NCBI GenBank assembly: GCA_021229015.1
Contig: CM037787.1
Coordinates: forward strand, 31,961,709 to 32,025,708
Reading direction: 5' to 3'
Length of the DNA stretch: 64,000 bases
Source of the DNA: Solen grandis
Lineage: Eukaryota > Mollusca > Bivalvia > Adapedonta > Solenidae
Position 1 is the stretch's first letter. Every line of letters begins with the position of its first letter. Below are positions 6,001 to 52,599 of this stretch, one piece after another. A program made the translations under genes and the position numbers. The notes below the pieces were generated by a model. The model saw only the letters and a program-made list of their open reading frames with translations, was not told the origin of the DNA and made no database searches.

Positions 6001-8535
6001 AGATATAGCGTCCACTCCAACGCAACATTATTGTAATTAAGCGGATTTTTTTTCCATTTAATTCATGCGGGTACGGTGAAACATAATATGATAAGTATTT
6101 CGATAGTGAAGCTCTTAATAACGTTCGGTCCGAAAAGGGTTTCAATGTTCATCTAAGAGAAGTATTTTGATAACACGATTATTCAAAATAAAAACTTCAG
6201 TCGGGATATTTTATTAATTCTTGAATTTTTTTTTTGGCTTACATGTAAACTTTCAAAACATATCAACGGAAAGCATAAAAGCCTTCTCACTATAAAGAAG
6301 TGCAATTTGAGTTATGGAAATCTCTCAAAGAAATATGTATGGTTTTATTCCCCAAACCCCATAAGAAAGCCAATATTATTGATATCGTAATCCAAAAGTA
6401 CTGAGCCTATCATCGACAATATTTGTAGACCATTTTCTATCTTTTCGTGATCATTTACGCATGTGGACAAACACACATATCTTTAAGTGTTTGTATTCAA
6501 AGTTGTTGAAAATGTCATAAATAAAACATGGTCTTCTGTTTACATAAACATCGTTTAGATAAATATGACCTTTAGATAATTACATACTTGGTCCTGTGTT
6601 GAAGAGCCTGATGAACTTATTCCAGGATTGACTCATGTTGTAATCCAATGATCGTTTCAAATAATAGTATAACGAAACAGCTGTATCCTTTGGGTTCCGC
6701 AGCAGTAAAACTTTTTTGCTCTTTTTTATATACTCTATCGGGGCCCTTTCCACGTTAAAATGAGAATTGACGACTTTCGGGCTTGACAGAGAAACAATTT
6801 CGTTGACCGTATAATCGTTCAGTAGTCTAGGCATGTAAGATGGCGAATCTTCCATGGGTCCATCGTAAAGGAGGAGAGAGAGAAGGTTTGATGTCCAGTG
6901 TGTTCCTGCAAACGGCCAGGATAAGCATTAAGGGCTAAGTGACACTACATTATCGAGTACATTGTACTAGTATAACCCATTCCATATATGAATGGTCGTA
7001 TATATGTTTGTTTCAGCATGTGGTCTACTTAGAATTTAACATCCTGAAGCAGGTACTTACGGTACCACGTGACACGTTACGCATCAGGCTGTCCTCACCA
7101 GTTCCGGGTAGCGAATTCGTATGTTCAGCCTGTGAATTGAACGCATGCGCGGAGACTGAATGTTATCAATCATGTGACGGCAAACGAAAATAGAAATTCT
7201 CAAGATAGGTTTTATAATTCTAAATATAGGTTCAATACAATTCGTAACGCTATTGACTGTAATGGAGAATACATCCATTTTTATTTTTACAATCACGGTT
7301 GCTTGCACTGGGTGACCATGTGTCTGTCTGTCTTTGTTTCCTGACAAATAAACTTAACAACGTGTTGGACACATTGCACGGGAAAACGCTTCTTTTGTAA
7401 ACGCCTCTTCGGGGAAATAGGCTAAATATAGAATACGGTGTACCCGAAGCGGTTGCTTACGGTACCACATGGCATGTTACGCTGCATGTTTTCATGTGAC
7501 GGCAACCGAAAATAAAAAATATAAATATAGGTTTTATAATTCTAATTTAATTTCAATACGGATGAATGCATTTAGTGACCATGCGTCTGTAGATTGGTAT
7601 TGATAAATATAATACAGACACATAGTTTAAAATCCAGTTTTAAGTCAATGACCATCAGTAAACGAGATGCTTTAAGTCAATGAGCATTTGGGGCGTGAGG
7701 TCATGGGTTCGATCTCAGGCCGCGACATACCAATGTCGTAAAACATGGTACTTGTATAGCTCCCTTGGCGCTCAGCATGCAATGTTAGTTCCAGGATTGA
7801 TAGGCCCGATATCAGGATAATGTGACTAGGTGTGGTATCATGCCACATGTCTACGGCCTGATACTGCAGTGTTGCAGCTTAATAACTGTCTCTAAACTGA
7901 CTGTAACAGTGTCGGCTGTACGGCAAGCTAAATAAACAATGTGTTGCGATGGGGAATTGAATTACCTTCATCTAAGGGTTAGGTTAGCGTATAGTCAACT
8001 AATTAAATGACCCTTATATACACAGAGCAGCAAGTTGTTATCGTTAAAGTGTAAGTATATTTGCAGTAATCGTATAACCGAATACTCAAATATATATTTC
8101 GTTTGTTGTTGTTGTTGTATTGGGGTTTACCGTCGCTGCGATAGTATTTCAATCACATAGCGACGTCCATCTAATTACAGGTGGAGGAAGACCCCGAGTA
8201 CACAGAGGTACCCGGGTAGAACCACCGACCTACCGCAAGCCAGCTGGAAGGCTTCCTCACATGAAAAATCCGAAGTCCCTACCTATTTCGTTTGTATTCA
8301 TACCTGTTTTGGGATACGAACAGAGTAGAATGTCTCCATCAGAGCATGGAATGTGTTTTATTTCTTGAAATCTCTTTGCTATAGAGCCATTTGGATATCC
8401 ATCCACAAAACGTTTCAAAAGCATGATTTCTTCATATTTGACTAGGACTATATCCTCCTCTCCATCATCATCTTGTATTTTAATTATCTGCTCCATTTCA
8501 CCGTCAAGTGATCCTATGAATTGTTCTAATTCCAT
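3084..8535 (-). CDS. Cytosolic sulfotransferase (SULT family), copy 1, five exons, apparently intact
   Basis: The product should transfer a sulfuryl group from PAPS to a small acceptor in the cytosol; the substrate cannot be told. Minus-strand exons are 8535-8304, 6905-6588, 5676-5573, 3766-3589 and 3193-3084. All introns are GT-AG, phases agree, and the sum is 942 nt (313 aa plus stop), normal for SULTs. Visible motifs: YPKTG at residues 74-78 with the PAPS-binding lysine K76, followed by THW; candidate catalytic H126 in VVNSHFNVERAP; the 3'-phosphate-binding block LLLRNPKDTAVS (R147, S155); and RKGEIGDWKNHFT at 276-288, the C-terminal PAPS signature. The start is the first Met of exon 1. 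The reading frame is open further 5' to a possible acceptor (ttttttgtag), so an upstream 5' exon is possible. Intron 1 carries two SINEs; a mariner relic lies in intron 3. Family assignment is firm; expression is unknown. Confidence 0.9.
3862..5230 (+). mobile_element. Mariner-type DNA transposon relic
   Basis: The inverted ends share TCAACAATTACGTAGAC and are flanked by TA dinucleotides (3860-3861 and 5231-5232); 1,369 bp is typical of mariner. Around 4400-4620 a decayed frame resembles the second helix-turn-helix region of mariner transposases (ITVRELLSATAKKYGTTYNI, then LNMRKVFTNFV). Stops interrupt it and the catalytic DDD/D part cannot be recognised, so it is inactive. It lies in intron 3 of sulfotransferase copy 1. 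Confidence 0.75.
5740..5830 (+). repeat. tRNA-like SINE remnant (family S3) in copy 1 intron 2
   Basis: The B box GGGGTTCGAACCCCG is followed by CCCAGCGCAAAGTACTGGTC. The same unit is at 11490-11570 in copy 2, and a related tail is near 18115-18165. A lone B box in decayed sequence, so not a tRNA gene. Confidence 0.5.
7670..7945 (+). mobile_element. tRNA-derived SINE (family S2) in copy 1 intron 1, decayed
   Basis: The B box (GGGTTCGATCTC) lies near 7705, followed by the S2 body (GTGTGGTATCATGCCACATG). The 3' end is diverged. The same insertion is present in copy 2 (53320-54385), so it predates the duplication. Confidence 0.75.
8107..8283 (-). mobile_element. 5'-truncated SINE (family S1) in sulfotransferase copy 1 intron 1
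   Basis: Only the 3' body is present, with a (CAA)n tail on the minus strand and target duplication TATTTCGTTTGT (8095-8106 and 8284-8295). It lies 19 bp after the exon 1 donor. The matching spot in copy 2 (about 54540) is unoccupied. Confidence 0.8.
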
Positions 8536-44031: not shown

Positions 44032-44037
44032 AATACA
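44032..44037. repeat. Target-site duplication, left (AATACA)
   Basis: Six bases directly before the element, repeated exactly at 52273-52278. The unoccupied site in sulfotransferase copy 1 is 6579-6584 (ATTACA), within otherwise matching flanks. Confidence 0.9.
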
Positions 44038-44069
44038 AGTAGTAATAGCAGCTCTTTACCCCCAAGACT

Positions 44070-44125
44070 GCGCATGCGCAGGAGTGACGTCATCAGATTA
44101 TTTGCGCATGTGCGGCGGCCATATT
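44070..44125. promoter_or_regulatory. Promoter-like motif cluster at the left end of the element
   Basis: Within 90 bp of the terminus lie GCGCATGCGC (44070-44079, a perfect NRF-1-type palindrome), TGACGTCA (44085-44092, CRE), a GCGCATGTGC variant and CCATATTGG (about 44117-44125). The cluster is identical at the other end. Confidence 0.45.
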
Positions 44126-44134
44126 GGTTTTCTA

Positions 44135-44226
44135 TATTTAGAATGATATCATGATCTATAGTTAGAAATGGCATCATGATCTATATTTAGAATGACATCA
44201 TGATCTATAGTTAGAAATGACATCAA
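44135..44226. repeat. Iteron-like repeats near the left terminus (about 25 bp x 4)
   Basis: Four tandem units alternate between TTTAGAATGACATCATGATC and GTTAGAAATGGCATCATGATC types. The same set occurs inverted at 52085-52178. Confidence 0.6.
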
Positions 44227-45425
44227 TGTACAGAGTTGTACATTTGACCTAGGGCTAAGGAGATTGAAGGTCAAGTCTTAGGCGGAGACACATTGTAAAC
44301 ACCAAAGAACATGAGATACAAAAGAGGTATTGATAGTCCCAATAATATACAGAGCTGACTTGTATATACAGTCATAAGGCTTAATCACGGACATTGAGGG
44401 TCAGGTCCTCAGCCTTAGACGGGGACTATACAAAATCTTAAATCAATAATGTTATCAACATATGATCATCATACAATAAACATACAATATATAAAACTAT
44501 ATCAAATAATATTTAGAAAAAAAAATAATAACGACATTACTTACGATGTGAACAGCTCCACGTTCTGTTATAAAATGAACTCAACACTCATGTCTTATGC
44601 GTGATCTGCCGTTTATGGTCATAATACTTCCGGAAACTATATTTAGAAATGTATTTAGCACTGTACAACTAGAATAAACCAGAATTAACCAGTTTTTAGG
44701 TCGCGTTTGGAACATTTTCAAAATGTATATAAGATTTATAATAACCAATCAGAATAGAGAGCGATGACGTTATGTTTAAAAATAAAGTCAATATTGGAAC
44801 GCATTTTTTGAACATGCCTGTACACGTTACTTCAACACAAAACGGAAATAAAGATCAAATTATCAGAATTCAGACGTGTGTGGAACACACTTTTTGAACA
44901 TGTCTGTACACATTATTTCAACACAATTTTTGAACATGTCTGTACACGTTATTTCAACACAAAACGGAAATAAAGATCAAATTTTCAGAATTCAGACGTG
45001 TGTGGAACACATTTTTGAATTTTTAAAATTTTTAAAAATGGAAATAAAGATCAAATCCTCAGAATTCAGGTGTGCGTGGAACACAATTTTTGAACATGTC
45101 TGTACACGTTATTTCAACATAATGACTTCTTTGCGAATATTGAAATCATTTAAAGCAGGCACCAGTACATTTCATAATCACATACACTGTGACCTATATA
45201 GCAACAGAAAGAAAAAACATCTTACCTACCATGCATGGATACATTTTACTTTGAATCTGGAGTAACACATTCCATTTGTTAAATTCTTTCTCTCTCTCTC
45301 TCTCTCTTAATTTCTGTAGAGTTTGTATATGATTATATAAGCACATTCTCATACTTGAAGTATCAAAGTTAATGAAGTACATGAACACGTACATGTATAC
45401 ATGTAACATTTTCATGTTATATTCC

Positions 45426-45473
<48 letters not shown>

Positions 45474-46627
45474 ATATACCATTTTAAGTCAAAGTATTTC
45501 CGGTAATTATTCTTGGAAATGTATTTCCAGTATACAACTAGAGTAAACCAGAGATAACTGGTTTACAATTTGAACCGACCAATGCCATGTCTTCATTTTA
45601 TATCGATTGAACAAGTATAGACATGTTGTCTAAAAATAACCATGACTTAGATCAACAACCAATCAGAAACGAAATGTAGTATTACAACCAATAACATGTT
45701 TCATTCCATGAATAGGCATGACATTGCACAACAACCAGCAATCATTTTTACTCCATGAACCTATGAGGCTAACACACACACACACACGCACACTTTCAAA
45801 CAAATGTGAAAGCGTTCTGGAAATTAAATGGACATGCCGAGTAAGGTAATCTTTTTAATATATAAATCACCTACCTTTTTTCCTCAGTATCCATTTTTTT
45901 ATATCACACAACAGAATTTCCAAAAAGTGAATGACATGTATATCCATTAGTCTTTAGAAATTTCCTGCACACAAAAAATTCCAACTGATCACTCTAAGAG
46001 AGCATACATAGAAAAAAAACCTGTGTACTCTGTGCGTGAAAAAGATTATGTTTTGGGCTTCGTTAACTTAAAACGCATGTGTGTGTGTAATCGACATAAT
46101 CCTAGAGCGGTGTGAAATAGCTAATTAAAAAGTCATTACCTCTTTCAGTTTACCAAATTATATACCATTCGAATATAAGTATAAAACATTGAACGAATTT
46201 TGTTATTTTGATTTCAGAAATCAATTGATTGATATTGTTTTAGTGCAAATTAAGTCTAAACACATGATTGATCTGATATGGATTCATTATTGATTATATA
46301 TACAAAAAACCAATATTTTCTTTTTTTCTGCTCTAACATTTAGTCAATTGAGTATACGAATTTTGTTATTTTGAATTTTTGAAACTCAGTTTATTTATAT
46401 TGTTTTAGTGCAAATCAAGTCTAAATACATGATTGATCCAATATTGATTATTTATCGATTTTTGTTATATAATACAAAAAAAAATTTCCTTTGTCATTTG
46501 AACAAACAAATAGTAAGAAGCTTCAAAATAAATCTGTTGTTTTTATTTTCAATCGAATTATTGTCAATTATCGATTTCATTGATTTCCCCCACCCACTTT
46601 TTTAAAGGTACAATGTTAAAAGGTAAT

Positions 46628-46926
46628 ATCTCCCTTAGTTGTTATCCGATTTGAATCATTTTCATAGCAATGGAAAGCTTAAAGTGAGATCTTTACTTTG
46701 AAACTCTTAACCGGAAGTCCATGATGAATAAAAACCGGAAATGACGTCATCACATGTAAAAAATGACTCTATCTTCCTTAGTTATTATCCGATTTGAATC
46801 ATTTTTATAGCTATGGAAAGCTCAAAGTGAGATCTTTACTTTGAATACTCTTAACCGGAAGTCCATGATGAATAAAAACCGGAAATGACGTCATCACATG
46901 TAAAAAATGACTCTATCTTCATTAGT
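46628..46926. repeat. 144-bp tandem array, left inner edge (two copies plus a start of a third)
   Basis: Units begin at 46628 and 46771, and a broken third begins at 46915. Each holds CCGGAAGT and CCGGAAAT (ETS-like cores) and TGACGTCA (CRE). The array ends where the core begins. Confidence 0.8.
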
Positions 46927-46974
46927 TTGAACTTCGAGGGTAGAAAAAACCATACGAAAATCTTGTCCTATAAG

Positions 46975-47049
46975 ATGGACAATGTCATGAACTACGACGA
47001 GGGATTTTCAGAGCTGGATCTAGAGATGTGTGAAGCCTGTTTAATATAA
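46975..47049 (+). CDS. Possible 24-codon reading frame at the left edge of the element core
   Basis: A short acidic frame (MDNVMNYDEGFSELDLEM...) opens just after CTATAAG and closes before the ATPase promoter. It could be a tiny protein, a leader, or the tail of a gene lost by deletion. Nothing confirms translation. Confidence 0.2.
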   Translation: MDNVMNYDEGFSELDLEMCEACLI

Positions 47050-47086
47050 GAACAAGCAGGATCAAAGTCTTGGGACTTATAAAAGC

Positions 47087-47097
47087 TTATAAGGGGA
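47087..47097 (+). promoter_or_regulatory. TTATAAGGGGA motif before the ATPase gene
   Basis: The 11-base TATA-like motif ends 28 bp before the ATPase ATG. The identical string ends 31 bp before the ATG of the second gene. Exact repetition at matching distance suggests a shared core promoter. Confidence 0.6.
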
Positions 47098-47125
47098 AGT
47101 GCCTCCTTTTTTCAGTTCATAAAAT

Positions 47126-48694
47126 ATGTTTTCTACAAAGTGTTTAGAGTGTGAACAAGTATTCACAAGAAGGGAAAATATGTTAAGACATTGTGCATTT
47201 AAACATGGAAATGAAAAGACAGTCAATGAAAGGCCTCCTCCTCCGGAATTGACTCCTCCTCCTCCTCCTCCTCCGGAATTGACTCCTCCTCCTCCTCCCT
47301 CCTCAGGGGGAGGAATTCTTCCTCTTTCTCCTCCTCAAGGGGGAGGTTCGATATTTCAGGGAGTACAGACACAAAAGAAAGTTAGGGAAATACCTCCTTC
47401 AACATTAACTAATGGACAGGAATTTGTTTTTCAACATCCCTTTACGTGTATGGTCAGCGGACCGACCTCTTGTGGTAAAACTTACTTCGTATCACAGCTA
47501 CTACAGAGGGCTTATGAAAAACTTCGTCCCGCTCCGCAACGTATTATCTGGTTATACAAGAGATGGCAACCGTTATATGACGAAATACAAAGAAACGTTT
47601 TTCCGGAAGTAGAATTCAAAAAAGGAGTACCTTTTAATCTTGAAAAAGACGAGTTTTTGGACCCTAGAGTCAGAAATGTGATCATATTAGATGATATGGC
47701 TACGGAAGCGGTGAAAGACCAACGAGTGACCGATTTATTCACGGAAGGTAGCCACCATAGAAATCTGTCTGTCATCGCTATCAACCAAAACCTGTATATC
47801 AGCAAAGATCCTACCCAGAGACGAAATTGCCATTATCTGGTATTATTTAACAACCCTATAGACAGACAACAGGTTATGACCCTTGCCCGACAAATGTACC
47901 CCAGTAACCCCCAAGAACTGTTAAGACCTTTTGAAAAGGCTGTTAGTCATCCCTATGGCTATTTATTCGTAGATTTAAAGCCACTTACACCAGCTTCACT
48001 GCGCATGCGCACAAATGTGATGGAATTTATAAGGGAAACAGATTGTAGAATGGAACCACAAAACGATATACAGAGACAGGATACTGTTCCAGTCGAAACT
48101 TTGCAAAACATCATGATTTCTTGCGACGACTGCGGTTCTATGTTTTCAGACATTAGTAACTTACAAAAACATGTCAGAGCATGGTGTCCAGCGGTGTTGA
48201 AAAGAAAAGCTGAACATACTAGTAATGAAGATGAGCCTACGAGTAAAGTAGGCCGTCGAGATTGGATCACCTGCGATGATGGTTCTGATAATGAAAGTTC
48301 TATGGACGAACAAGACTTCATTGAAGACATAAATGAATATTTCGAATCCTTAGCCAAAAAAGCTGGTGAGAAAACGGAAACAATTTGGGATGAAAAATAC
48401 TACGAATATAGAAATGAAGGAAACTCAGAACAGAAAGCCCGTTCAAAAGCCTACGAGTTTGTCTTTGAAGACGATAAAAAAGAATTCATGCGAATGTGTA
48501 CAGATTTTTTGAGAACAGCGGCTCAAATAGAAGGAAGCGTCGTTCATCAGAAAATTCTTCGAGAAATTTTGGATTCAGACAATAAAAAGAAAGTGATTAA
48601 ACGAGTATTGAAAAAGTACAATCATTGGTTCGATGAGGTCATTGGTCACGGAGAGATAGATTCGGAATCTAGTGATGATGATGATGATGAATAA
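47126..48694 (+). CDS. A32/FtsK-HerA-type DNA-packaging ATPase flanked by two zinc fingers
   Basis: The single-exon gene encodes 522 aa. In viruses and Polintons this ATPase class is thought to pump the genome into the capsid. Domains: a C2H2 finger (C6, C9, H22, H27); a low-complexity proline/glycine linker (36-75); an ATPase core with Walker A GPTSCGKT at 112-119, Walker B VIILDD at 185-190 and a polar INQN at 219-222; a second finger of C2HC type (C333, C336, H349, C354); then a charged, helical C-terminus ending in an acidic tail (510-522). The start is the first ATG after a TATA-like motif. The stop is followed 30 bp later by AATAAA and then the small downstream gene. There are no stops or frameshifts. 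The family call rests on motif order; I cannot name the nearest relative. Confidence 0.85.
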   Translation: MFSTKCLECEQVFTRRENMLRHCAFKHGNEKTVNERPPPPELTPPPPPPPELTPPPPPSSGGGILPLSPPQGGGSIFQGVQTQKKVREIPPSTLTNGQEFVFQHPFTCMVSGPTSCGKTYFVSQLLQRAYEKLRPAPQRIIWLYKRWQPLYDEIQRNVFPEVEFKKGVPFNLEKDEFLDPRVRNVIILDDMATEAVKDQRVTDLFTEGSHHRNLSVIAINQNLYISKDPTQRRNCHYLVLFNNPIDRQQVMTLARQMYPSNPQELLRPFEKAVSHPYGYLFVDLKPLTPASLRMRTNVMEFIRETDCRMEPQNDIQRQDTVPVETLQNIMISCDDCGSMFSDISNLQKHVRAWCPAVLKRKAEHTSNEDEPTSKVGRRDWITCDDGSDNESSMDEQDFIEDINEYFESLAKKAGEKTETIWDEKYYEYRNEGNSEQKARSKAYEFVFEDDKKEFMRMCTDFLRTAAQIEGSVVHQKILREILDSDNKKKVIKRVLKKYNHWFDEVIGHGEIDSESSDDDDDE

Positions 48695-48696
48695 GT

Positions 48697-48707
48697 TTAT
48701 AAGGGGA
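48697..48707 (+). promoter_or_regulatory. TTATAAGGGGA motif before the small basic gene
   Basis: The second exact copy of the motif, starting 3 bp after the ATPase stop codon and ending 31 bp before the next ATG. Confidence 0.6.
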
Positions 48708-48724
48708 GAAGACTAATAGACATA

Positions 48725-48730
48725 AATAAA
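48725..48730 (+). terminator. Polyadenylation signal AATAAA for the ATPase gene
   Basis: It lies 30 bp after the ATPase stop and 8 bp before the next ATG, so the 3' end of one unit and the promoter of the next overlap. Confidence 0.45.
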
Positions 48731-48738
48731 AACTAATA

Positions 48739-49047
48739 ATGAACATTGACAGATGGTCACAACATTTTCGCCTCATGGCCGAGGGAAAACTACGTCCTAA
48801 TCATAAAGGACACTACGTTGTAGAAAAAATACAGACTGGTGGCACGTCTAAAGAACCGACCATTCAGTATGTTACCCCTGTGGCACAAGCAGTAGAAATG
48901 GCCAAGTCAGAACTCAAGAGACAAGACTCTCCACCAAGGGAAAGAAAGTCTACTTCCATGAAACGTCAGAATATGAGTTTCCCTGTAAAATCAAACAAAA
49001 GATTTCGACCACCAGGAATTCCAGCCAATTCAACCTTCTATGTTTGA
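48739..49047 (+). CDS. Small basic protein of the Polinton-like element, function unknown
   Basis: The protein has 102 aa and is strongly basic in its second half (ELKRQDSPPRERKSTSMKRQ, then KSNKRFRPPG). No membrane segment or catalytic motif is seen. It starts 44 bp after the ATPase stop, with its own copy of the TTATAAGGGGA motif 31 bp before the ATG, and is followed by two AATAAA-bearing repeats, so it looks like a separate transcription unit. Size, charge and position would suit a virion core or DNA-binding protein, but this is inference; I do not recognise it. The reading frame stays open over its whole length in AT-rich DNA, and it shares promoter and polyadenylation layout with its neighbour, which argues that it is real. 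Confidence 0.65.
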   Translation: MNIDRWSQHFRLMAEGKLRPNHKGHYVVEKIQTGGTSKEPTIQYVTPVAQAVEMAKSELKRQDSPPRERKSTSMKRQNMSFPVKSNKRFRPPGIPANSTFYV

Positions 49048-49059
49048 GACTAAGGACAA

Positions 49060-49199
49060 TATAATTGTAGAACAGAAAATGTGTGCATGTTAAAACGATT
49101 TATATTGCAAAATAAAATAAGTTATAGATTTAAATTGTATAATTGTAGAACGGAAAATGTATGCATATGAAAGCGAATTGTATTGCAAAATAAAATAAA
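49060..49199 (+). terminator. Duplicated 78-bp repeat, each copy ending in AATAAA
   Basis: Two units (starting about 49061 and 49139) share ATAATTGTAGAAC...GAAAATG...TATTGCAAAATAAAATAA. AATAAA occurs at 49111, 49189 and 49194. They sit directly after the small basic gene and probably serve as its polyadenylation region. Confidence 0.5.
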
Positions 49200-49242
49200 T
49201 GTGTTTGTTTTCTTTGACAATAGGATCCTCAAAACAACCAAC

Positions 49243-49305
49243 TCTTTAAAAAATGGGAAATCAATGAAATCGATAATTGACAATAATTCGATTGGAAATC
49301 AAAAT
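49243..49305 (-). repeat. Extra partial copy of inverted-repeat sequence inside the core
   Basis: About 60 bp repeat the stretch 49813-49880 of the right inverted repeat (GGGAAATCAATGAAATCGAT and onward). The 144-bp array therefore has the same sequence on both sides on the right. Confidence 0.65.
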
Positions 49306-49356
49306 TAGCTTTTCATAGCTCTATAAAAAAATATATATAAATCGAGTGAAAACTAA

Positions 49357-49789
49357 AGGAAATAGGGTCAATTTTGACATGTGATGACGTCATTTCCGGT
49401 TTTTATTCATCATGGACTTCCGGTTAAGAGTATTCAAAGTAAAGATCTCACTTTGAGCTTTCCATAGCTATAAAAATGATTCAAATCGGATAACAACTAA
49501 GGGAGATAGAGTCATTTTTTACATGTGATGACGTCATTTCCGGTTTTTATTCATCATGGACTTCCGGTTAAGAGTATTCAAAGTAAAGATCTCACTTTGA
49601 GCTTTCCATAGCTATAAAAATGATTCAAATCGGATAACAACTAAGGGAGATAGAGTCATTTTTTACATGTGTTGACGTCATTTCCGGTTTTTATTCATCA
49701 TGGACTTCCGGTTAAGAGTGTTCAAAGTAAAGATCTCACTTTGAGCTTTCCATTGCTATGAAAATGATTCAAATCGGATAACAACTAAG
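49357..49789. repeat. 144-bp tandem array, right inner edge (three copies)
   Basis: Units begin at 49357, 49501 and 49645 on the inverted strand and carry the same ETS-like and CRE motifs. The middle copy keeps TGACGTCA followed by TCACATG; the innermost-but-one differs by single bases. Confidence 0.8.
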
Positions 49790-50958
49790 GGAGATATTAC
49801 CTTTTAACATTGTACCTTTAAAAAAGTGGGTGGGGGAAATCAATGAAATCGATAATTGACAATAATTCGATTGAAAATAAAAACAACAGATTTATTTTGA
49901 AGCTTCTTACTATTTGTTTGTTCAAATGACTAAATATTAGTGAAAAAAGGAAAAAAAATCGATAAATAATCAATATTGGATCAATCATGTATTTAGAATT
50001 GATTTGCACTAAAACAATATAAAAAAAAATTGAGTTCTAAAAATTCAAAATAACAATATTTGTATACTCAAATGACTTAATGCTAGAGCAGAAAAAAAAA
50101 AGAGAAGGAAATATTATTTTTTGTATTATATAACAAAAATCGATAAATAATCAATATTGGATCAATCATGTATTTAGACTTGATTTGCACTAAAACAATA
50201 TCAATCAATTGATTTCTGAAATCAAAATAACAAAATTCGTTCAATGTTTTATACTTATATTCGAATGGTATATAATTTGGTAAACTGAAAGAGGTAATGA
50301 CTTTTTAATTAGCTATTTCACACCGCTCTAGGATTATGTCGATTACACACACACATGCGTTTTAAGTTAACGAAGCCCAAAACATAATCTTTTTCACGCA
50401 CAGAGTACACAGGTTTTTTTTCTATGTATGCTCTCTTAGAGTGATCAGTTGGAATTTTTTGTGTGCAGGAAATTTCTAAAGACTAATGGATATACATGTC
50501 ATTCACTTTTTGGAAATTCTGTTGTGTGATATAAAAAAATGGATACTGAGGAAAAAAGGTAGGTGATTTATATATTAAAAAGATTACCTTACTCGGCATG
50601 TCCATTTCATTTCCAGAACGCTTTCACATTTGTTTGAAAGTGTGCGTGTGTGTGTGTGTGTGTGTGTGTATACGCCTCATAGGTTCATGGAGTAAAAATG
50701 ATTGCTGGTTGTTGTGCAATGTCATGCCTATTCATGGAATGAAACATGTTATTGTTGTAATTCTGATTGGTTGTTGATCTAAGTCATGGTTATTTTTAGA
50801 CAACATGTCTATACTTGTTCAATCGATATAAAATGAAGACATGGCATTGGTCGGTTCAAATTGTAAACCAGTTATCTCTGGTTTACTCTAGTTGTATACT
50901 GGAAATACATTTCCAAGAATAATTACCGGAAATACTTTGACTTAAAATGGTATATCAC

Positions 50959-50993
<35 letters not shown>

Positions 50994-52084
50994 GGAATAT
51001 AACATGAAAATGTTACATGTATACATGTACGTGTTCATGTACTAAATTAAATTTGATACTTTAAGTATGAGAATGTGCTTATATAATCATATACAAACTC
51101 TACAGAAATTAAGAGAGAGAGAGAGAGAGAAAGAATTTAACAAATGGAATGTGTTACTCCAGATTCAAAGTAAAATGTATCCATGCATGGTAGGTAAGAT
51201 GTTTTTTCTTTCTGTTGCTATATAGGTCACAGTGTATGTGATTATGAAATGTACTGGTGCCTGCTTTAAATGATTTCAATATTCGCAAAGAAGTCATTAT
51301 GTTGAAATAACGTGTACAGACATGTTCAAAAATGTGTTCCACACACTGAATTCTGAATTTGATCTTTATTTCCTTTTGTTGAATAACGTGTACAGCATGT
51401 TCAAAAACCTTTTGTTGAAATAACGTGTACAGACATGTTCAAAAATTGTGTTGAAATAATGTGTACAGACATGTTCAAAAAGTGTGTTCCACACATGTCT
51501 GAATTCTGATAATTTGATCTTTATTTCCGTTTTGTGTTGAAGTAACGTGTACAGGCATGTTCAAAAAATGCGTTCCAATATTGACTTTATTTTTAAACAT
51601 AACGTCATCGCTCTCTATTCTGATTGGTTGTTGATCAAAATCATGGTTATTTTTAGATAAAAACTGGTTAATTCTGGTTTATTCTAGTTGTACAGTGCTA
51701 AATACATTTCTAAATATAGTTTCCGGAAGTATTATGACCATAAACGGCAGATCACGCATAAGACATGAGTGTTGAGTTCATTTTATAACAGAACGTGGAG
51801 CTGTTCACATCGTAAGTAATGTCGTTATTATTTTTTTTTCTAAATATTATGTTGATAACATTATTGATTTAAGATTTTGTATAGTCCCCGTCTAAGGCTG
51901 AGGACCTGACCCTCAATGTCCGTGATTAAGCCTTATGACTGAATATACAAGTCAGCTCTGTATATTATTGGGACTATCAATACCTCTTTTGTATCTCATG
52001 TTCTTTGGTGTTTACAATGTGTCTCCGCCTAAGACTTGACCTTCAATCTCCTTAGCCCTAGGTCAAATGTACAACTCTGTACAT

Positions 52085-52178
52085 TGATGTCATTTCTAAC
52101 TATAGATCATGATGTCATTCTAAATATAGATCATGATGCCATTTCTAGCTATAGATCATGATGTCATTCTAAATATAG
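52085..52178. repeat. Iteron-like repeats near the right terminus
   Basis: The inverted counterpart of 44135-44226, with only one or two base changes. Confidence 0.6.
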
Positions 52179-52183
52179 AAAAC

Positions 52184-52240
52184 CAATATGGCCGCCGCAC
52201 ATGCGCAAATAATCTGATGACGTCACTCCTGCGCATGCGC
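52184..52240. promoter_or_regulatory. Promoter-like motif cluster at the right end of the element
   Basis: The mirror image of the left cluster: TGACGTCA at 52218-52225 and GCGCATGCGC at 52231-52240. It sits about 40 bp from the donor of sulfotransferase copy 2 exon 2. Confidence 0.45.
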
Positions 52241-52272
52241 AGTCTTGGGGGTAAAGAGCTGCTATTACTACT

Positions 52273-52278
52273 AATACA
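52273..52278. repeat. Target-site duplication, right (AATACA)
   Basis: An exact repeat of 44032-44037. On the minus strand it forms part of the first 9 bases of intron 2 of sulfotransferase copy 2. Confidence 0.9.
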
Positions 52279-52281
52279 TAC

Positions 52282-52599
52282 TTGGTCCTGTGTTGAAGAG
52301 CCTGATGAACTTATTCCAGGATTGTCGCATGTTGTAATCCAATGATCGTTTCCAATAATAGTATAATGAAACAGCTGTATCCTTTGGGTTCCGCAGCACT
52401 AAAACTTTTTTGCTCTTTTTTATATACTCTGTCGGGGCCCTTTCCACATTAAAATGTGTATTGACGACTTTTGGGCTTGACAGAGAAACAATTTCGTTAA
52501 CCGTATAATTGTTCAGTAGTCTGGGCATATAAGATGGCGAATCCTCCATGGGTCCATCGTAAAGGAGGAGAGAGAGAAGGTTTGATGTCCAGTGTGTTC
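52282..52599 (-). CDS. Sulfotransferase copy 2, exon 2
   Basis: The exon is 318 nt, the same length and phase as copy 1 exon 2. It encodes GTHWTSNLL, the candidate catalytic histidine in VVNTHFNVERAP, and the 3'-phosphate-binding block VLRNPKDTAVSLYYYWKRS. It differs from copy 1 by only a handful of residues (for example N/D, T/S, W/L, R/S) and has no stop. The donor GTATGT is intact, but 9 bp into the intron the sequence switches to the end of the Polinton-like element. The next coding piece on this strand is the start of exon 3 at 11409. Confidence 0.88.

What the first reader, a model, noticed from the sequence alone, without database searches (positions are those of the whole stretch)
44038..52272. 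Minimal Polinton-like element carrying only a packaging ATPase and a small basic protein
Seen: a 6-bp duplication (AATACA), 5'-AG/CT-3' ends, inverted repeats of about 2.9 kb, and a 2.4-kb core with two open genes. Known: Polintons are usually 15-20 kb, with polymerase B, integrase, protease, ATPase and capsid genes. Here only the packaging gene is kept, intact, while everything needed to copy and insert is gone. One reading is a satellite that borrows polymerase, integrase and capsids from full Polintons but brings its own packaging motor, perhaps to favour its own DNA. A recent deletion derivative is the simpler alternative.
Basis: partly seen in the sequence, partly recalled or inferred. 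Interest (0 to 1): 0.9.

Follow-up and report, generated by a model that had tools for sequence, protein, structure and literature searches.

The report
Polinton satellite with its own packaging motor
In a genome that is likely a mollusc's, an 8-kb mobile element found in dozens of copies shares its ends with full-length virus-like transposons (Polintons) but lacks their polymerase, integrase and likely capsid genes; it carries an intact gene for a predicted packaging motor unlike theirs, so it is likely a satellite that borrows their enzymes and shells and would favour its own DNA in packaging.

Summary
It is not a one-off: 83 loci with this ATPase lineage were scored (77-100% identity, contigs C1-C19). 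All 20 copies fetched have both genes in the same order; 16 of 17 copies with both ends found (window included) have perfect 6-bp duplications; 36 of 47 ATPases at 96% identity or more lack in-frame stops; substitutions show moderate purifying selection. A 19-kb Polinton in the same genome (polymerase, integrase, protease, likely capsid gene) has the same ends, shares the small gene (87% over 60 aa), the repeats and a TATAAGGG motif before genes, but its ATPase is 31-37% identical and of another class. So this is not a plain deletion derivative. I read it as a satellite lineage: helper-type ends and small gene plus a packaging ATPase from another Polinton lineage. Helper dependence is inferred from missing genes; self-packaging is untested. 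A side finding: bases 8-28 of the ends form a hypervariable tag, different in 16 of 16 independent copies yet the same at both ends in 16 of 17.

The parts
44032..44037 (.). Target-site duplication AATACA, left copy
52273..52278 (.). Target-site duplication AATACA, right copy
44038..46933 (+). Left terminal inverted repeat (about 2.9 kb, no recognisable gene)
   Evidence: 2470 of 2896 bases covered by matches to the capsid-side part of a full-length Polinton (L031), 883 by its polymerase-side part (L032)
49345..52272 (-). Right terminal inverted repeat (about 2.9 kb, no recognisable gene)
44045..44064 (+). Hypervariable terminal tag, left end (element bases 8-27; alignment columns 8-28)
   Evidence: 16 of 16 independent copies differ here while columns 1-7 and 29-70 are invariant
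52246..52265 (-). Hypervariable terminal tag, right end, identical to the left one
   Evidence: 16 of 17 copies have the same 28-mer at both ends
46627..46927 (+). Inner 144-bp tandem repeats (2 copies), about 92-94% identical to an array at the matching place in the full-length relative
49328..49796 (-). Inner 144-bp tandem repeats (3 copies), right arm
47087..47096 (+). TTATAAGGGG promoter-like motif 39 bp upstream of the ATPase ATG
   Evidence: present at 38-39 bp in 18 of 21 copies; the core TATAAGGG also lies before genes of the full-length relative
48697..48706 (+). TTATAAGGGG promoter-like motif 42 bp upstream of the small-gene ATG
   Evidence: present at 40-43 bp in 19 of 21 copies
47126..48694 (+). 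A32-like, predicted packaging ATPase, 522 aa: N-terminal C2H2-like finger, proline-rich linker, Walker A GPTSCGKT (47459-47482), two invariant Walker B aspartates (D189, D190), second C2H2 (residues 332-351), helical C-terminus, acidic tail
48739..49047 (+). Small basic protein, 102 aa; 87% identical over 60 aa to the gene just upstream of the capsid-like gene in the full-length relative

Best explanation
The element is a non-autonomous Polinton relative, present in dozens of copies, that likely lives as a satellite of the full-length Polintons whose ends it shares, and it encodes a predicted packaging ATPase, of a different lineage from theirs, that would serve to load its own DNA into borrowed capsids. 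Shown: the same ends as full-length elements; 6-bp duplications at different sites; no polymerase, integrase, protease or capsid gene of its own; two conserved genes, each behind a TATAAGGG motif that also precedes genes of the one full-length element read; an ATPase under moderate purifying selection; a small gene close to the helper's. Inferred: the helper's polymerase copies it by protein priming from the AGTAGTA ends, the helper's integrase inserts it, the helper's capsid and protease make the particle. Inferred and untested: its own ATPase, perhaps with the small basic protein, recognises a packaging site in the long repeats (the 144-bp arrays are the best candidate) and so gains a share of capsids. 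Its long repeats resemble the capsid-side end of the helper, present at both ends, as expected if one end replaced the other during replication through a panhandle. The ATPase was most likely gained by recombination with another Polinton lineage.
For: Copies and layout: 39 further core matches at 93-99%; 83 ATPase loci at 77-100% identity; ATPase then small gene in 20 of 20 fetched copies, with both inverted ends found in 16 and one in 4. Mobilisation: 16 of 17 copies with both ends have perfect 6-bp duplications; a 178-bp element with the same ends has one too, so the ends suffice. Helper: C1:71857623-71876587 has the same ends and codes for PolB, rve integrase, an adenovirus-type protease, a capsid-like gene, BIR, TBP-like and ATPase genes. 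Seven further loci with the helper-type ATPase have a listed end beside or around them. Different motor: 31-37% identity to that helper's ATPase, another clade, and a longer C-terminal part; helper-type stop-free loci have open frames of about 325-337 aa. 0 of 83 ATPase loci of this lineage lie within 15 kb of any of 75 scored PolB loci; the 16 that lie inside listed end pairs are in 5.8-9.0-kb elements, the 3 helper-type ones inside pairs are in 17.7-27.9 kb. Selection: dN/dS 0.36 by NG86, 0.55 after correcting for transition bias, one-sided P = 0.007. Promoter-like motif.
Against: No transcript, particle or packaged DNA was seen. The selection test uses the 16 of 21 copies with intact frames and is moderate. 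Only 31 of 83 loci have an open frame of 500 aa or more without a stop. PolB scoring covered 75 of 1021 candidates, so a full-length element with this ATPase could have been missed; one ATPase locus of this lineage lies 22 kb from a PolB. Of 12 helper-type ATPase hits in the region whose ends were listed, 6 have no listed end within 25 kb (several of these are short, decayed pieces). The A32 match of the window ATPase is below Pfam's cut-off (21.1 against 22.8 bits), the helper's more so (15.5), the capsid-like gene has only a sub-threshold Pfam match (P2_C, E = 0.059), and the fold searches were weak. That the ATPase packages rather than, say, interferes with the helper is inference.
Confidence: 0.75

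Rival explanations
1. Plain deletion derivative (defective-interfering-like genome) of a full-length Polinton that happens to keep an ATPase gene and has been trans-mobilised in bulk, with no role for its genes.
For: Ends, repeats and small gene resemble the full-length family's; smaller derivatives exist: two read (178 bp and 2.6 kb) have no match to either protein, and end spacing suggests others of 0.6-3.7 kb, so genes are not needed for mobilisation.
Against: The ATPase is not the full-length family's (31-37%); it is under moderate purifying selection; it sits in elements of the same size from 77% to 98% identity.
Confidence: 0.12
2. Derivative of a second, autonomous Polinton lineage that carries this long double-finger ATPase and that I did not find; the shared ends would then be those of that lineage.
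For: A Polinton with a double-finger ATPase of the same build (523 aa, 40-41% identity) lies beside a PolB hit in the genome (C1:76.436 Mb); two bivalve homologues have this ATPase followed directly by an integrase or chromodomain (P0079, P0118).
Against: 0 of 83 ATPases of this lineage lie within 15 kb of 75 scored PolB loci (not exhaustive); the small gene is 87% that of the other, short-ATPase family.
Confidence: 0.15
3. The ATPase and small protein act against full-length Polintons (a packaging decoy, perhaps useful to the host) rather than for the element's own packaging.
For: Both gene products are homologous to packaging or virion-operon proteins of the Polintons and could compete with them (inference).
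Against: Copies keep inserting as complete elements with matched ends, which a host-kept decoy would not need.
Confidence: 0.08

Closest known systems
Polintons / Mavericks (full-length, same genome, e.g. G000:C1:71857623-71876587)
   Same: AGTAGTA ends, 6-bp duplication, end repeats, small gene (87% over 60 aa), TATAAGGG motif before genes
   Different: Window element lacks polymerase, integrase, protease and capsid-like genes; its ATPase is 31-37% identical and of another class; 2.9-kb repeats at both ends
Transpovirons (about 7-kb elements carried by virophages and giant viruses; passages of PMC7031253 seen, size from the abstract start)
   Same: Small element with terminal inverted repeats, carried in another element's particles together with its own DNA-binding protein and helicase
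   Different: Unrelated genes (no A32-type packaging ATPase that I know of); episomal, not inserted with 6-bp duplications
Phage satellites that redirect packaging (PICIs, cf-PICIs, P4; passages of PMC10803314 seen, details recalled)
   Same: Small genomes that use a helper's particles; some bring packaging-redirecting genes (terS, sid, ppi named in the passage)
   Different: Bacterial and terminase-based; no homology known to me
Defective-interfering adenovirus-type genomes with long symmetrical ends (recalled, not tested)
   Same: One end duplicated at both ends, as the repeats here suggest
   Different: Those are one-off deletions; this is a multi-copy lineage with a foreign ATPase

Membership tests
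Polinton/Maverick (autonomous) | AG...CT terminal inverted repeats | tested here: met
   AGTAGTA...TACTACT in the window copy and the 16 others with both ends found
Polinton/Maverick (autonomous) | 6-bp target-site duplication | tested here: met
   16 of 17 copies; L028 is the miss (inverted flanks); L011 and L014 share one insertion site
Polinton/Maverick (autonomous) | Protein-primed DNA polymerase B | tested here: not met
   no frame of 150 aa or more besides the ATPase in the window; 0 of 83 ATPase loci within 15 kb of 75 scored PolB loci
Polinton/Maverick (autonomous) | rve-type integrase, adenoviral protease, capsid genes | tested here: not met
   in the full-length relative the integrase is over cut-off, the protease just under (20.8 of 21.3 bits) and the capsid gene recognised from memory and adjacency
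Polinton/Maverick (autonomous) | A32-type packaging ATPase | tested here: met
   Walker A Gly-Lys and both Walker B aspartates invariant in 22 aligned proteins; Pox_A32 E = 2.5e-4 but under the cut-off; many of the 120 homologues listed carry PF04665 or PF02456; activity not tested
Polinton/Maverick (autonomous) | 15-25 kb length (PMC6431247 passage) | tested here: not met
   8.2 kb; 5.8-9.0 kb in the 16 other cases inside listed end pairs
Virus satellite | Lacks essential genes that a co-resident helper has | tested here: met
Virus satellite | Shares cis signals with the helper | tested here: met
   ends, repeats and promoter-like motif
Virus satellite | Own lineage, not a simple deletion of the helper | tested here: met
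   ATPase of another clade, constrained, in old and young copies; limits as in evidence against
Virus satellite | Replicated and packaged by the helper; affects helper yield | not testable with these tools
   needs particles or infected cells
MITE-like non-coding derivative | No coding capacity | tested here: not met
   two constrained genes; relatives without either gene exist (L033, L034)

The most novel reading that the evidence does not exclude
Polintons have satellites: a long-lived eukaryotic lineage of chimeric mini-genomes with the helper's ends, promoters and a virion-operon gene but a packaging motor taken from a rival Polinton lineage. Helper and satellite alike carry a combinatorial 20-bp end tag that is renewed from a shared pool of short words and copied to both ends before each insertion.
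Probability: 0.55. Interest if true: 0.92.

Novelty: new variant of a known kind. Interest (0 to 1): 0.86.

Why it matters
Polintons code for capsids, yet (from memory) their particles have been hard to find. A satellite whose only genes are packaging- or virion-related, and under selection, argues that Polinton DNA in this animal lineage really is packaged and that elements compete for capsids. It also gives a eukaryotic counterpart of phage satellites, and a concrete sequence set to look for in virion DNA. The matched hypervariable end tags are a separate, testable puzzle about how linear protein-primed genomes copy and recognise their ends.

Tried and rejected
Chance or artefact: rejected (428 end motifs against 0 in the reversed control). 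One-off deletion: rejected by copy number and by the foreign ATPase. Origin from the most numerous PolB group (one member read, C15:4.8 Mb, L029/L030): rejected, no AGTAGTA ends found in the two stretches, ATPase 37%. Relatives in IMG/VR: two scans, none confirmed. Relatives in GTDB contigs: one scan, none confirmed. Fold searches with a model of mean pLDDT 67.5: PDB best E 0.038, viral best E 6e-4 to an unnamed protein, a Klosneuvirus packaging ATPase at E 0.36; too weak to use. PHROGs: nothing useful. Literature: the searches showed, in titles and abstract starts, no paper on Polinton satellites or on non-autonomous Polintons with an ATPase; several listings were cut (25 of 60, 12 of 29, 15 of 129). 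Only passages of PMC4028283, PMC6431247, PMC7031253 and PMC10803314 were seen. Repbase is not held, so entries there cannot be excluded.
Full report
1. The observation. The window holds an 8,235-bp element at 44038-52272 with a perfect 6-bp duplication AATACA on both sides and ends AGTAGTAA/TTACTACT. Its inverted arms are about 2.9 kb each, with an inner array of 144-bp tandem repeats (two copies left, three right). The core has two intact ORFs on the + strand, 522 and 102 aa. No other stop-to-stop frame of 150 aa exists in the window.

2. The two proteins. In an alignment of the 522-aa protein with 21 homologues, the Walker A Gly-Lys and the two Walker B aspartates are invariant and the rest of Walker A nearly so. 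It has a C2H2 finger on each side of the ATPase domain and an acidic tail. Pfam gives Pox_A32 at E = 2.5e-4, under its cut-off. Of 546 homologues at E <= 0.001 the best 120 were listed, and many of those carry PF04665 (A32) or PF02456 (adenovirus IVa2, name recalled). The named animal homologues in that list are bivalve proteins (Pecten, Mytilus, Solemya, Pinctada, Mya, Ruditapes, Mizuhopecten, Mercenaria); one is labelled a Sedimenticola MAG, probably host DNA. I therefore take the host to be a bivalve; the genome itself is unnamed. In a Mya and a Mytilus prediction the same kind of ATPase runs straight into an integrase or chromodomain (P0079, P0118), which marks it as a Polinton gene. The 102-aa protein is basic and has 18 relatives at E <= 1. 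In one of them (P0132) it runs into a sequence that I recognise from memory as the start of a Polinton capsid protein.

3. Copies in the source genome. G000 (1.32 Gb) has 39 further scored matches of the core at 93-99% DNA identity (40 of 673 candidates scored) and 83 scored loci for the ATPase protein at 77-100% identity, the window's included (83 of 4053 candidates), on each of contigs C1-C19 and two small ones. All 20 have ATPase then small gene in the same order; both inverted ends were found in 16 and one end in 4. The ATPase frame is 515 aa or longer in 16 of 21 copies, the window included, and the small frame 101 aa or longer in 18 of 21. No other ATG-started ORF of 130 aa or more was found in the stretches, except two in L018, of which one lies outside the element and the other lies upstream where that copy's left end was not found. 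Of 17 copies with both ends (window and 16), 16 have a perfect 6-bp duplication. Two pairs (L011/L014, L012/L013) share flanks, so they are one insertion each. Among the 83 loci, 36 of 47 at 96% identity or more have no in-frame stop over the aligned stretch, 6 of 15 at 93-95%, 2 of 13 at 88-92% and 0 of 8 below; 31 of 83 have an open frame of 500 aa or more and no stop. The lineage is thus both old and recently active. The 77% locus at C13:52.36 Mb still sits in a 7.9-kb element with matched ends; whether it keeps the small gene was not looked at.

4. Selection. Over 461 codons and 120 pairs of the 16 intact copies, mean dN is 0.0067 and dS 0.0187, ratio 0.36. Correcting the expectation for the transition bias seen in the repeats raises this to 0.55, with one-sided P = 0.007 for fewer amino-acid changes than neutral (48 against 33 silent). 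For the small gene the ratio is 0.16 over 18 copies, on few changes (11 against 12). This is moderate evidence that the proteins do something for the element.

5. The full-length relatives. The family-wide end motif occurs 222 + 206 times, against 0 + 0 for the reversed pattern; the first 100 places were listed. One pair of ends, C1:71857623-71876587, encloses 18,965 bp with a PolB hit. Read as two stretches (L031, L032) it has a GTCATT duplication and: BIR (PF00653), TBP-like (PF00352), rve integrase (PF00665) and a 1347-aa PolB (PF03175), all over Pfam's cut-offs; an adenovirus-type protease (PF00770, just under, 20.8 of 21.3 bits); an ATPase that matches the window's (E about 1e-37) but Pox_A32 only weakly (15.5 bits); the small gene; and a capsid-like gene known by memory, adjacency and one sub-threshold coat-protein match (P2_C, E = 0.059). 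The capsid-like and ATPase genes are each in two frames in this copy, and an insert that I read from memory as a retrotransposon lies in the left repeat. A search with part of its ATPase found 39 loci that I count at 80% or more identity (150 of 1832 candidates scored). Six of the 39 lie within 3.1 kb of a scored PolB. Of the 12 in the part of the genome whose ends were listed, six have an AGTAGTA end within 25 kb and six do not; two more, on C11 and C13, have such an end within 10 kb. A second long element (C4:21.2 Mb, 27.9 kb, helper-type ATPase) has a TAAATA duplication.

6. What is shared and what is not. Matches to L031, which holds the capsid-side end, cover 2470 of 2896 bases of the window repeat, and matches to L032, the polymerase-side end, 883; the C4 element gives 1671 against 407, though there the capsid-side stretch fetched was twice as long. 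So the long repeats look like the helper's capsid-side end placed at both ends. The inner 144-bp arrays (92-94%) are more conserved than the sequence between (about 80%), which makes them the best candidate for a packaging or control site; that is inference. The small gene is 87% identical over 60 aa. The motif TATAAGGG occurs 7 times in L031 plus L032, all on the strand of the PolB, ATPase, integrase, small and capsid-like genes, where about 0.8 is expected from a letter shuffle; the window outside the element has 4 in about 56 kb. In the window element it stands 38-42 bp before both start codons, and once more inside the ATPase frame; 18 and 19 of 21 copies keep the two upstream ones as TTATAAGGGG. 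The ATPase, however, is 31-37% identical to the helper's. In a FastTree tree of 124 sequences over about 140 residues it lies in a clade of 10 with support 0.999 that holds a Solemya and a Mercenaria protein, far from the helper's. An ATPase of the same build in this genome belongs to another Polinton at C1:76.436 Mb: 523 aa, 40-41% identical, two fingers and acidic tail, a PolB hit nearby. None of the 83 ATPase loci of this lineage lies within 15 kb of any of the 75 scored PolB loci, and one lies within 25 kb (75 of 1021 candidates were scored, so this is not exhaustive). One search had 159 of 428 ends, forming 47 pairs: 16 loci of this ATPase lie inside pairs, all of 5.8-9.0 kb; 3 of the 19 helper-type ATPases given lie inside pairs, of 17.7, 19.0 and 27.9 kb; 28 pairs (0.18-31.5 kb) hold no scored ATPase.

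7. How it probably works. The integrase signature (ends plus 6-bp duplication) without an integrase gene means insertion in trans; a 178-bp element with the same ends and a TGCACT duplication shows that the ends are enough. A 2.6-kb element with such ends shows no clear duplication in the sequence printed. Replication by the helper's protein-primed PolB, and packaging in its capsids, follow from established Polinton and adenovirus biology (recalled, partly in PMC6431247 passages). The two selected genes are an ATPase of the packaging class and a virion-operon basic protein, so self-packaging is the economical reading. Transpovirons, whose own proteins travel with them in virophage particles (PMC7031253 passages), and phage satellites that redirect packaging are the nearest working analogies.

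8. The end tags. In 16 independent copies, alignment columns 1-7 are invariant, columns 8-28 differ at 0.308 per site between copies, and columns 29-70 are invariant again. All 16 tags are different, yet 16 of 17 copies have the same 28-mer at both ends. Elsewhere the arms of one copy differ by 0-1.3% at clean sites; counted over whole BLAST alignments, repeats and indels included, by 0.05-4.6%. Among 32 end pairs in the listed part, 23 are identical, against a 0.012 chance for two different elements; of the 9 others most differ by one base, and two (31.5 kb and 0.6 kb) are probably not true partners. The tags are built from a limited pool of words in many combinations (54 of 68 elements distinct). 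The words are not fully independent: 2 of 6 position pairs exceed all 300 shuffles and a third equals the highest. The eight helper ends seen use words from the same pool. I cannot explain this. Template switching between co-replicating ends followed by copying of one end to the other through a panhandle is my best guess; diversifying selection on end recognition would explain why it is kept.

9. Limits.

Noticed in passing
44045-44064 and 52246-52265; ends of L009-L028 and of G000 elements: Hypervariable, combinatorial 20-bp tag between invariant blocks at both ends: unique per independent copy (16 of 16), matched within a copy (16 of 17), word pool shared with full-length Polintons.
   Followed up: partly
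44065-44106 and mirror; 144-bp repeats: The invariant subterminal block contains GCGCATGCGC and TGACGTCA, and the inner repeats TGACGTCA; I recognise these from memory as NRF1- and CREB/ATF-type sites; not tested.
   Followed up: no
L028 (G000:C9:33.893-33.904 Mb): No duplication: the two 600-bp flanks are inverted copies of each other (99.7%) and the arms have no isolated difference at 1739 clean sites, as if the element sits at the centre of a large inverted duplication.
   Followed up: partly
L033 (G000:C3:81651781-81651958): A 178-bp palindrome-like element with the same ends and a perfect 6-bp duplication: a minimal trans-mobilised derivative.
   Followed up: yes
G000: The genome is rich in Polintons: 1021 PolB candidates, 75 scored, many with open frames over 1,200 aa, including a large group with nearly equal scores (such as C15:4.81 Mb).
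   Followed up: partly
L031:6527-6892 and 7239-7526: The full-length relative carries BIR (inhibitor of apoptosis) and TBP-like genes; the TBP-like protein might read the shared TATAAGGG motif.
   Followed up: no
52271-52549, - strand: The frame next to the right end reads like a sulfotransferase (from memory); the element may sit in or beside such a gene.
   Followed up: no
L011/L014 (C4:31.92 and 31.95 Mb): Two copies 31 kb apart in opposite orientation share the same flanks: a local duplication after insertion.
   Followed up: no
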